Translations under genes and position numbers: made by a program
Shown: piece by piece, positions 11,301-12,548 of the stretch
Position numbering within the stretch: the stretch's first letter is position 1
How the letters are laid out: each line of letters begins with the position of its first letter
The notes under the pieces: model-generated
Databases searched by the model: none
Told to the model about the DNA's origin: nothing
Seen by the model: the letters and a program-made list of their open reading frames with translations, nothing else
Source: Acropora yongei
Taxonomy: Eukaryota > Cnidaria > Anthozoa > Scleractinia > Acroporidae
NCBI GenBank assembly: GCA_014634225.1
Contig: BLFN01000951.1
Location: forward strand, 487,404-500,470
DNA length: 13,067 bases
Direction of reading: 5' to 3'

Positions 11301-12548
11301 ATCCAAAGAAACAGTGACACTTACGTAATATTTCATCGCAATAAATGTGGGTGTCTCGAAAACTAAGACCTCGAAAACAAAGACCTAGGACCTAAGACCT
11401 CGAAAACTAAGACCTCGAAAACTAAGATTAAAAACGATCAGTAAACGACCCAAGGAAGCATTGTGCGATCAATCATCTTTCTTCTCACGGATAAAATTTC
11501 GAGGAAGTCTTCGTTTTCTAGGGGGTCTTTCTTTTCGAGGGTTCTTTGTTTTCTAGGGGATTTCGATTACGATTGTATCTGATTTTTATTTGTGTTATAA
11601 AGAGAACGGCATTCAAGGCATACAGTACCATAACTGAATCAGCATAGGACTTTCAGTCGGTTTTATTAAACCGTTAAAATAGGGCGGAAGACCCAAGATG
11701 GCCAATGCTGGTAAAGTTGTCAAAGGTAAGGAGGCCTTACACGTTGTATTTTTGAATTTCGAACGGGGTCTTAGTTTTCGAGGTCTTAGTTTTCGAGGTC
11801 TTAGGTCTTAGGTCTTTGTTTTCGAGGTCCCCCAAATAAATGTTCATCTCTACGCGGAGCTATTTGTGTCATCCGCCTATTTAAGGTAAACCTTGCGCCA
11901 AGTTTCGCTTCTTTTTTTTCTTGTTCTTTTTTTTTTCCTAAGTGAGCAATTTGTCTCAGTCTTCATAATGAAAACAAAGAAGTAATGAAACTTAACTATA
12001 TATTTATTTATCAATTGAATTTTATCATCGATGAGGCCAAAAGTCAATAATCGTGTGCTGATGTTTTCCTCAAAATCTCATCTTTGGCTTGTTTATGATA
12101 TTAAAAGAAATGTGCAAACGAAAGGCCCGTGGCTCAAGCGAAATAAGCGTGCAAAGTCTCTGTTTTGTAATATGCAGATGTCTAGCTTTCCTGCTGAGTT
12201 CATTTGTAGAAACAGGGGAGTCGACAAGACCAGACAAACTGTCGACCTTAGAGATCATTGCGCTTCCCTTTGCAATAGACTAATTATTTGCAATGAAAGA
12301 ATGTCACCTGGATTTTCTTTCTTTCTCCGATCTTGTGATTCGTTCAGCGTTGCCTTTAGTTGTGCAACCTCTTCCAAAAGCTTTCTTTCCAACTGTCTTA
12401 CTTGCTGTTCAACAGAATAATTGCGTATATATAAAACAACAGTCAGGCAGCTTCCAACAAAGGATAGAAAACAGAAGATCAGGAGAAGATTGTATCGGGG
12501 ATTGTTTCCTGAAGAGGACGGCTTCGTTTTTTTGTCAGAGCCTTGCAT
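8279..12548 (-). CDS. Type II transmembrane collagen-like protein (colmedin/gliomedin-like architecture), 3'-partial gene model
   Basis: Gene model joined by eye from four exons (12548-12308, 10541-10143, 9232-9017, 8368-8279). All three introns are phase 1 with GT..AG ends, giving about 315 residues. Predicted order: basic cytoplasmic tail (1-19), one transmembrane helix (about 21-41), coiled coil (about 46-70), furin-like RLSRR (82-86), CX6C module, Gly-X-Y run (118-166), four-Cys interruption (167-187), Gly-X-Y run (188-212), a second CX6C module (214-237), then Gly-X-Y from 238 to the end of exon 4. No signal peptide precedes the helix, so a type II plasma-membrane trimer is inferred, with the collagen part outside the cell and possibly shed. 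Known families with this layout are colmedins (gliomedin), ectodysplasin, collagens XIII/XXV and MARCO. The C-terminal head (olfactomedin, TNF, SRCR or other) is not visible, so no symbol is given. Confidence 0.82.
8936..9008 (+). repeat. Degenerate GAGT/GAAT tetranucleotide tract
   Basis: Runs of GAGT, GAAT and variants fill the region just inside the exon 3 donor (intron 3). Scattered similar tetranucleotides occur at 8660-8700. Confidence 0.8.
9017..9232 (-). CDS. Exon 3: second CX6C module and uninterrupted collagen stretch
   Basis: 216 nt, phase 1 at both ends. The acceptor TCGTCCCAG|AA (9234-9233) has a clear pyrimidine tract upstream, and the joined split codon is Glu214. The donor ATCAG|GTGAGA (9016-9015) is strong. 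The first 24 residues (NIRQEIKKQ, then Cys228 and Cys235) repeat the layout of the start of exon 2. Sixteen Gly-X-Y triplets follow (Gly238-Gly283) with no interruption. An ATG (Met234) lies inside the exon but is not taken as a start, because the codons before it match the exon 2 module and the splice phase fits. Confidence 0.88.
9363..9473. mobile_element. TTAA-flanked MITE (piggyBac-like termini), copy 2
   Basis: Begins TTAACCCTTTCCCG at 9363 and ends GGGGTTAA at 9473, so inverted ends lie directly on TTAA. PiggyBac elements duplicate TTAA and often start CCCTT, which suggests this superfamily. The left third (AAGGGGTTCC) is shared with the element at 3206-3284. It lies in intron 2 of the collagen gene. 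Confidence 0.55.
9474..9640. mobile_element. Degraded dispersed repeat fragment beginning ACGACGGCAACGGC
   Basis: Immediately abuts the TTAA MITE. The start (ACGACGGCAACGGCAACG) resembles a high-copy anthozoan repeat I recall, and 6950-7090 begins similarly. There is no coding potential and the boundaries are approximate. Confidence 0.35.
9660..9800 (+). mobile_element. Penelope-like element terminal fragment (inferred from the ribozyme-like motif)
   Basis: The hammerhead-like core and the downstream hairpin AGTCCT/AGGACT read like the terminal repeat portion of a Penelope-like retroelement. I recall near-identical strings as very abundant in marine invertebrate genomes. No reverse transcriptase or GIY-YIG reading frame is present, so it is a solo or truncated fragment. 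The boundaries are estimates. Confidence 0.4.
9678..9722 (+). ncRNA. Hammerhead-ribozyme-like motif of the Penelope-retroelement (short stem III) type
   Basis: Elements appear in type I hammerhead order. Stem I is TGACT (9678-9682) with AGTCA (9718-9722), 5 bp perfect. CTGAAGA (9683-9689) fits core CUGANGA. Stem II pairs GGC (9691-9693) with GTC (9707-9709), one wobble, after an extra T at 9690. GAAA (9710-9713) follows, then a minimal AC/GT stem III, then GTC with the expected cleavage after C9717. Hammerheads with reduced stem III are known to be widespread in Penelope-like elements and to act as dimers. The extra base before stem II and that stem's short length mean activity is uncertain. 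A perfect hairpin (9731-9746) follows. Confidence 0.5.
9965..10028. repeat. Inverted repeat in intron 2
   Basis: GTGTTTTCACT (9965) and AGTGAAAACAC (ending 10028) are perfect 11-bp inverted repeats around a 42-nt loop. This may be the remains of a small MITE. Confidence 0.6.
10143..10541 (-). CDS. Exon 2: furin-like site, CX6C module and two collagen stretches with a Cys4 interruption
   Basis: 399 nt, phase 1 at both ends. The acceptor CGGAAG|GG (10543-10542) restores a Gly codon with exon 1, and the donor AATAG|GTAATT lies at 10142-10141. The exon opens with RLSRR, then a short amphipathic segment (LKRVREEINKM). CX6C follows at residues 108 and 115, with an NGT sequon (111) between. Perfect Gly-X-Y runs from Gly118 to Gly166. 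An imperfection at 167-187 holds four Cys (168, 172, 179, 182), then Gly-X-Y resumes at 188-212. Many triplets are GEP, GEK and GDx. The 10-N gap lies 16 bases upstream of the acceptor, so the polypyrimidine tract there is only partly known. Confidence 0.88.
10558..10567. other. Assembly gap (10 N)
   Basis: Ten N lie between a collagen exon and an A-rich run (10568-10620) on the plus strand. The true length is probably arbitrary. The gap sits in the polypyrimidine tract just before exon 2, read on the minus strand. Confidence 0.97.
10568..11339 (-). other. 3' portion of intron 1 of the collagen gene
   Basis: Starts with an A-rich tract on the plus strand (the T-rich tract before the exon 2 acceptor). 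No further exon recognised. The frame at 10941-11153 has no domain. Confidence 0.6.
11367..11427 (+). repeat. Left inverted arm (61 bp)
   Basis: Pairs with 11829-11769 at 60 of 61 positions, counted by eye. Contains tandem 15-bp units with an ACCTAGGACC variant in the middle, which is the single mismatch. Confidence 0.9.
11596..11760 (+). pseudogene. Captured gene 5' end: TATA box, ATG exon and 5' splice site inside the inverted-repeat element
   Basis: TATAAA at 11596-11601 is followed about 97 bp later by an ATG (11698) in strong Kozak context (AAGATGG). The ATG opens MANAGKVVK, and a good donor AAAG|GTAAGG follows at 11726-11727. This is the normal layout of a promoter, short 5' UTR, first coding exon and intron start. 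The peptide reminds me of the N terminus of class III alcohol dehydrogenase (glutathione-dependent formaldehyde dehydrogenase), but nine residues cannot prove it. No later exon is visible, and the frame read through the donor stops within the right arm. It may be a transduplicated gene fragment, or less likely the real first exon of a plus-strand gene overlapping the collagen gene. Confidence 0.4.
11769..11829 (-). repeat. Right inverted arm (61 bp)
   Basis: Reverse complement of 11367-11427 with one mismatch. The low divergence suggests recent insertion or arm homogenisation. Confidence 0.9.
11844..12307 (-). other. 5' portion of intron 1 of the collagen gene
   Basis: Begins at the GTGACA donor. 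The open frames on both strands at 12031-12420 are partly antisense to exon 1 and otherwise unsupported. Confidence 0.6.
12308..12548 (-). CDS. Exon 1: cytoplasmic tail, transmembrane helix and coiled coil
   Basis: Encodes residues 1-80 plus the first base of codon 81. The start chosen is the first ATG in frame (12548-12546, context with G at -3). The frame is open upstream for only about 20 codons without ATG, to a TGA at 12611-12609. The tail carries basic patches (DKKTK). Residues 21-41 are a hydrophobic helix (LLLIFCFLSFVGSCLTVVLY). Residues 46-70 form heptads rich in Val/Leu/Glu/Lys. Sequons NYS (43) and NES (69) lie on the proposed outer side. The donor is CCAG|GTGACA at 12307-12306, phase 1. 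A different reading of the N terminus is possible (see the overlapping ORF at 12535-12612). Confidence 0.78.

What the first reader, a model, noticed from the sequence alone, without database searches (positions are those of the whole stretch)
11340..11843. Exon-carrying inverted-repeat element: possible animal Pack-MULE-like gene capture
Seen: 61-bp inverted arms with one mismatch, made of 15-bp units, and identical 9-bp direct repeats AATAAATGT at both outer edges. Inside are TATAAA, a strong-context ATG encoding MANAGKVVK, and a GTAAGG donor. Known: Mutator-like elements have long TIRs and 9-bp duplications, and in plants they carry host gene pieces. Inference: a non-autonomous element moved a host promoter and first exon into the collagen intron. 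If mobile in many copies, it would seed promoters and first exons around the genome.
Basis: partly seen in the sequence, partly recalled or inferred. Interest (0 to 1): 0.75.

Follow-up and report, generated by a model that had tools for sequence, protein, structure and literature searches.

The report
Coral mobile element, gene capture unproven
A 485-base piece of coral DNA is a real but small and incomplete jumping element whose ends recur at some thirty places in the genome; that it carries a captured gene start is not shown, since no parent gene was found in the readable part of the genome.

Summary
In detail: 61-bp arms (one mismatch) of ~15-bp units, with AATAAATGT at both outer edges. 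It is a non-autonomous DNA transposon of Mutator/foldback build. Its terminus recurs 38 times, at 31 places, in the 405-Mb host assembly (reversed-pattern control 0). Flanks were held for 30 of the 38; 11 loci had paired ends, 3 with exact 9-10 bp duplications, one imperfect, 7 none. The interior was found at one other place, C49, attached to the same arm: a second, truncated copy, not a parent. Searches for a parental exon found none, but 44% of the bases I fetched by place read N, so absence is weak evidence. The ORF is frameshifted between the copies. ATG-ORF-donor sets occur in 12 of 284 background pieces, 1 of 284 with TATAAA. The captured first exon is thus unproven. Mutator membership is likely, but GG ends and 9-bp duplications also fit Merlin, and no transposase was tied to these ends. 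Closest analogues: nematode Tm1 and Drosophila FB, whose Ssk-FB4 is already called a Pack-MULE.

The parts
11340..11348 (.). left copy of 9-bp target site duplication AATAAATGT
11349..11427 (+). left terminal inverted repeat: terminus GGGTGTCTCG plus tandem ~15-bp units
   Evidence: terminus recurs (38 hits with its own)
11428..11504 (.). left interior spacer; no separate genome search of it was answered
11505..11559 (-). degenerate internal array of units in right-end orientation; possible old right end of a smaller element
   Evidence: (I10-I12)
11560..11764 (.). interior shared (from 11662 on) with the only other copy found, C49:1020429-1020592
11596..11601 (+). TATAAA; function not shown
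11698..11725 (+). nine-codon ORF MANAGKVVK plus one base; putative first exon, not shown to be one
11726..11731 (+). GTAAGG, donor-like
11765..11833 (-). right terminal inverted repeat, one unit shorter than the left, with divergent terminus; 11834 is an extra base
11835..11843 (.). right copy of 9-bp target site duplication AATAAATGT

Best explanation
A non-autonomous, MITE-sized (485 bp, 486 with A11834) cut-and-paste DNA transposon with foldback-type terminal inverted repeats built from tandem ~15-bp units, most likely of the Mutator superfamily. It inserted into an intron of a collagen-type gene of a coral (probably Acropora) and duplicated nine bases of target. Shown: paired ends, the 9-bp duplication, relatives with the same kind of ends (some with their own duplications), a second copy of part of the interior with the same arm. 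Inferred: a transposase supplied in trans bound the repeated units and moved it; the ATG, TATA and donor inside are incidental or decayed. The collagen-type gene runs on the minus strand, so a plus-strand exon here would be antisense to it.
For: Inverted arms and duplication. 38 matching termini at up to 2 mismatches in the genome, the window's own included, against 0 for the reversed pattern. Flanks were held for 30 of the 38 hits; in these, 11 distinct loci have some opposite end (at up to 4 of 15 mismatches) within the piece; exact 9-10 bp duplications at 3 (C47 TATCACTAC, window AATAAATGT, C138 TGACTGAGGC), an 8-bp one with one mismatch at C362, none at 7; random pairs of positions give 171 of 15826 at up to one mismatch and 16 of 15826 exact. 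Different interiors behind similar termini. Second copy of the interior from 11662 on, with the same arm, at another locus. Foldback potential z -11.2, 0 of 100 shuffles as good. Tm1 of nematodes has the same kind of anatomy (PMC3169594, passages).
Against: No autonomous partner: neither the 4 PF10551 (MULE) places nor the 9 PF12762 (Merlin) places lie on a contig with any of the 38 termini (both family searches score only the best candidates and see no withheld stretch). 7 of 11 paired loci show no duplication, including the 809-bp C49 element with two matching ends. The superfamily is therefore unproven. An empty allele could not be looked for (no relatives held). The ATG/ORF/donor plus TATAAA set is uncommon in background (1 of 284 half-overlapping pieces) and much of what I fetched reads N, which leaves room for a real captured exon.
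Confidence: 0.76

Rival explanations
1. True Pack-MULE/Pack-TIR: the element captured a host promoter and first exon and moved it at least once.
For: ATG in strong context, nine open codons, donor GTAAGG and TATAAA upstream; this set is found in 1 of 284 background pieces. A second copy exists. Animal precedents exist (PMC8277862, sections read). The N-terminus resembles class III alcohol dehydrogenase (recalled, no call).
Against: No parent found: (but 35310 of 80111 bases fetched by place read N). Family TIGR02818 (control rang in 13 of 14 genomes) and a typed class III alcohol dehydrogenase (no control) gave no match at all in this genome, so that lead could not be tested; in the window the codon after K9 begins with G, which does not fit the recalled protein. 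ORF: 3 substitutions plus 1 frameshifting gap in 28 columns between copies, against 2 in the 36 columns before it. The pattern was defined after seeing the case.
Confidence: 0.2
2. Composite element: the left end belongs to one small element (11349 to about 11559) and the right end to another, so the stretch 11560-11764 is whatever lay between two neighbouring elements and was carried along by end bypass.
For: Internal array in right-end orientation at 11505-11559. The C49 copy shares only the part from 11662 to the right end.
Against: No copy of the left part alone has been found; the separate search of the left interior did not complete. Internal arrays could also arise by slippage.
Confidence: 0.25
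3. The element belongs to the Merlin superfamily, not Mutator.
For: Merlin has TIRs of 24-462 bp with terminal GG and 8- or 9-bp duplications (PMC8101967, passages); this family mostly starts with GGG and has 9-10 bp duplications. DDE_Tnp_IS1595 matches are in the genome (9 places, most with stops).
Against: Most foldback elements are placed in Mutator (PMC4079207, passages; Tm1, PMC3169594, passages). No Merlin place lies on a contig with a terminus, which is equally true of the MULE places.
Confidence: 0.2

Closest known systems
Tm1, Mutator/Foldback family of root-knot nematodes (PMC3169594, passages)
   Same: Composite TIRs of variable numbers of 13-15 bp tandem units, arms of unequal unit number, mostly 9-bp duplications, MITE-like members, several kinds of interior
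   Different: Unit sequence differs as printed; Tm1 has members with a putative Phantom-type transposase, here none was found
Foldback (FB) elements and Ssk-FB4 of Drosophila (PMC8277862, abstract, passages and sections 7, 8, 9, 12, 14)
   Same: Repetitive TIRs, 9-10 bp duplications, non-autonomous; Ssk-FB4 carries host gene sequence and is called a Pack-MULE
   Different: FB4 TIRs about 700 bp; Ssk-FB4 has a known parental gene, here none found
Tetris foldback of Drosophila virilis (PMC4079207, passages)
   Same: Tandem repeats in TIR, 8-10 bp duplications, no transposase found
   Different: TIRs up to 1735 bp with 220-bp units
Sea urchin foldback element (named in a passage of PMC4079207; TU name and details recalled only)
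   Same: Inverted repeats of short tandem units (recalled)
   Different: Not compared here
CMITE of Acropora (PMC2872659, outline and first two of four parts)
   Same: Coral MITE
   Different: 13-14 bp TIRs, TTAA duplications, piggyBac type

Membership tests
Mutator-like elements (MULE) | 8-11 bp target site duplications | tested here: met
   9 bp in window; exact 9-10 bp at 3 of 11 paired loci, imperfect at 1, none at 7
Mutator-like elements (MULE) | long terminal inverted repeats | tested here: met
   61-bp near-perfect arms; shorter than the hundreds of bp called common (PMC6446971, passages)
Mutator-like elements (MULE) | mobilised by a MULE transposase sharing the same termini | tested here: inconclusive
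   4 PF10551 places, none on a contig with a terminus; their flanks could not be fetched
Foldback elements | TIRs made of tandem short repeats, able to fold back | tested here: met
Pack-MULE / Pack-TIR | two TIRs of one element around non-element DNA | tested here: inconclusive
   two TIRs are there; that 11560-11764 is not element DNA is not shown
Pack-MULE / Pack-TIR | identifiable parental host sequence not itself linked to the element | tested here: inconclusive
   none found, but much of the fetched sequence reads N; not filed as a Pack-MULE
Merlin | terminal GG and 8-9 bp duplication | tested here: met
   one member (C138) has 10 bp or 9
Merlin | IS1595-type transposase with the same termini | tested here: inconclusive
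   9 PF12762 places, none on a contig with a terminus

The most novel reading that the evidence does not exclude
A coral foldback/Mutator family repeatedly picks up host gene starts or fragments and spreads them: this element with a TATA-to-donor unit (its exon-like part at two loci), and the 809-bp C49:2766219-2767027 element with a decayed coding-like segment matching C117:51876-51945 and C120:2309161-2309214. This would be an animal counterpart of plant Pack-MULEs, built by end bypass between neighbouring foldback elements.
Probability: 0.15. Interest if true: 0.55.

Novelty: new member of a known kind. Interest (0 to 1): 0.27.

Why it matters
It adds a tandem-unit foldback group to what can be said of cut-and-paste elements in corals. 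Paper searches with coral terms (2 of 2 papers listed; 20 of 104; 20 of 224; 3 of 3) showed no title or abstract start about such elements in corals; the nearest seen were a suggested pack-MULE in a sea anemone (PMC9842752, passages) and CMITE. If gene capture were shown, it would tell how animal genomes could receive ready-made first exons; that step is not shown here.

Tried and rejected
Class III alcohol dehydrogenase as parent: suggested by the recalled N-terminus; family TIGR02818 and a typed protein matched nothing in the genome, which shows little, because stretches are withheld and the search works exon by exon; left as an untested lead. C49:1020429 as the parent gene: rejected, since it carries the same arm and terminus; among ORFs of 60 aa or more beside it I recognised by eye no continuing gene (1768 of those 9900 bases read N). 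Autonomous partner: in the 38-hit list no opposing pair on one contig lies 1 to 20 kb apart; transposase searches did not meet the termini. Viral contigs: pattern of the arm, 0 hits.

Full report
Observation. The window sequence and the repeat scan show inverted arms 11367-11427 and 11769-11829, 61 nt with one mismatch, and AATAAATGT at 11340-11348 and 11835-11843. The longest exact inverted match in 10800-12300 is 39 nt, against a maximum of 22 in 200 Markov shuffles. The unit CTCGAAAACTAAGAC occurs 9 times at up to 2 mismatches in the whole window, each time inside the element, 0.07 expected. As a DNA strand the element folds far better than shuffles (z -11.2, 0 of 100 as good). An exact 9-bp match at a similar spacing occurs 2 times in 100088 comparisons in the window.

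Host. The window lies in an assembly of 405,079,160 bases in 365 contigs at C347:487404-500470. It holds an exact copy of the 60-bp internal consensus of CMITE, a MITE group described from Acropora millepora and A. palmata (9381-9440; PMC2872659, first two of four parts read). The coral is therefore probably an Acropora or near it (inference). A collagen-type gene runs on the minus strand: a collagen-repeat ORF at 10111-10698 and an ORF at 12258-12587 that I read as a membrane-anchor first exon (the reading is mine). The element lies between these, in an intron by inference. A plus-strand exon in the element would be antisense to that gene.

Copies. The whole element finds itself, a 164-bp match at C49:1020429-1020592 (93%), and arm-only relatives (25 matches in all, only 10 candidates scored). 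The interior 11560-11764 alone, at E up to 10, finds only itself and C49. The C49 place carries the exon-like segment, the right arm and the terminus GGGTGTCTCGAAAAC, and its likeness stops at window position 11662 on the other side; the left part was not found there. It is a second, truncated copy, not a parent gene.

Family. The terminus pattern GGGTGTCTCGAAAACNNAGACC at up to 2 mismatches gives 38 hits (21 plus, 17 minus; the window's own left end is one; 31 distinct places by my grouping), and the same pattern read backwards gives 0. A stricter form gives 7, control 0. 30 of the 38 hits were held with 1.5-kb flanks. In these, 29 left/right pairs at up to 4 mismatches in 15 per end fall in 11 distinct loci (C47, two in C49, C341, C347, C16, C194, C362, C2, C14, C138); several of these loose pairs may be chance. 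Exact duplications of 9-10 bp are at C47 (259 bp, TATCACTAC), the window and C138 (191 bp, TGACTGAGGC), an 8-bp one with one mismatch at C362 (261 bp); the other 7 loci show none, including the 809-bp element C49:2766219-2767027 with two matching ends and the 480-bp pair at C341. Random pairs in the same loci give 171 of 15826 at up to one mismatch and 16 of 15826 exact. Stretches inward of the ends fall into 19 clusters among 30 pieces; some pieces are two ends of one element, some may run past a short element, and the cluster that joins C47, C341 and the window rests on short matches.

Is there a captured exon? TATAAA, ATG, nine codons and GTAAGG are there. In 284 N-free, half-overlapping background pieces of the same length, the ATG-ORF-donor set occurs on either strand in 12, and with TATAAA upstream in 1; this is suggestive but was defined after seeing the case. 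Against capture: pattern ATGGCNNNNGCNGGNAARGTNNTNAAR finds only the window (1 hit, control 0); a looser one with donor and 3 mismatches gives 9 hits, namely the C49 copy (0 mismatches), the window, six close together in C120 and one in C196 (3 mismatches each), control 1. Between the two copies the ORF has 3 substitutions and one frameshifting gap in 28 columns, the 36 columns before it 2 substitutions, the 37 after it 4, the 65 of the arm 4 (the script's borders are two bases off the true ORF 11698-11725; by my reading the ORF counts do not change). So there is no sign that the reading frame is kept. In the C49 copy the frame would be MAIAGKVSK with the donor in phase 0, in the window MANAGKVVK with the donor in phase 1; which is ancestral is open. 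The N-terminus resembles class III alcohol dehydrogenase (recalled); tests of that lead matched nothing (control rang in 13 of 14 genomes, no control). All these absences are weak: of the 13 stretches I fetched by place, 11 hold N, 35310 of 80111 bases.

A possible better case of cargo. The interior of the 809-bp C49 element has a segment that matches C117:51876-51945 (84%) and C120:2309161-2309214 (91%). In those two places an open frame reads MYIKWEK.S..QQVK.INLTL and then meets a stop; in the element the like frame reads MCIKWEKPCLEQQVKHINTI. C117:51945 lies about 0.9 kb from a terminus of the family at C117:52864. This may be a host gene fragment or another repeat; I did not identify it.

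Which superfamily? Duplications of 8-11 bp and long TIRs mark Mutator-like elements (PMC6446971, passages). Most foldback elements have been placed in Mutator (PMC4079207, passages), and Tm1 of root-knot nematodes has the same kind of anatomy: 13-15 bp tandem units, unequal arms, 8-10 bp duplications at 45 of 53 complete elements, MITE-like members (PMC3169594, passages). But Merlin also has terminal GG and 8-9 bp duplications (PMC8101967, passages). The genome search gave 4 PF10551 (MULE) places and 9 PF12762 (Merlin) places; none is on a contig with one of the 38 termini. I could not read their flanks (for two of the MULE places; the others were not asked for). So 'works like a Mutator/foldback non-autonomous element' is well supported; 'is a Mutator element' is likely, not shown.

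Novelty. Pack-TIRs are known in animals: 370 in 100 reference genomes, with no Pack-MULE among these, but Ssk-FB4 of fly populations is called a Pack-MULE (PMC8277862, sections 7, 8, 9, 12, 14). A ~15-kb insertion suggestive of a pack-MULE is mentioned for a sea anemone toxin locus (PMC9842752, passages). The present element is one more non-autonomous element of a known kind. The paper searches (2 of 2, 20 of 104, 20 of 224 and 3 of 3 papers listed) showed no title or abstract start on foldback elements of corals; only open-licence papers are searched.

How it most likely works. Shown: ends, duplication, relatives. Inferred: a transposase made elsewhere binds the repeated units, pairs the two arms, cuts the element out and joins it to a target with a 9-base stagger. 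Repeated units make arms prone to slippage and to use of ends of neighbouring elements, which could explain the inner array and the varied interiors. No result here suggests that the ATG-to-donor stretch is used; no expression data were at hand.

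Noticed in passing
window 9367-9469: A CMITE (piggyBac-type coral MITE): 60-bp internal consensus exact at 9381-9440; TTAA at 9363-9366 and 9470-9473.
   Followed up: partly
window 3208-3285: A second CMITE-like stretch with CCCTTTCAC...GTGAAAGGG ends near TTAA, by eye only.
   Followed up: no
window 12258-12587 (-): ORF read as the membrane-anchor first exon of a collagen-type gene; 3 close relatives (82-88% identity) in the protein database.
   Followed up: partly
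G000:C49:2766219-2767027 (L025:1720-2528): 809-bp element with two matching ends, no target duplication, and a decayed coding-like segment also found at C117:51876 and C120:2309161.
   Followed up: partly
G000:C49:1021168-1024644 (L022, L042): Long open frames on the minus strand (244 and 914 aa) next to the truncated second copy; not identified.
   Followed up: no
G000:C271:5401224 and 5401602 (L030:1725 and 2103): The same terminus twice, 378 bases apart, in a direct duplication.
   Followed up: no
window 1581-2112: A direct repeat of about 262 bp in two copies, 91-93% alike.
   Followed up: no
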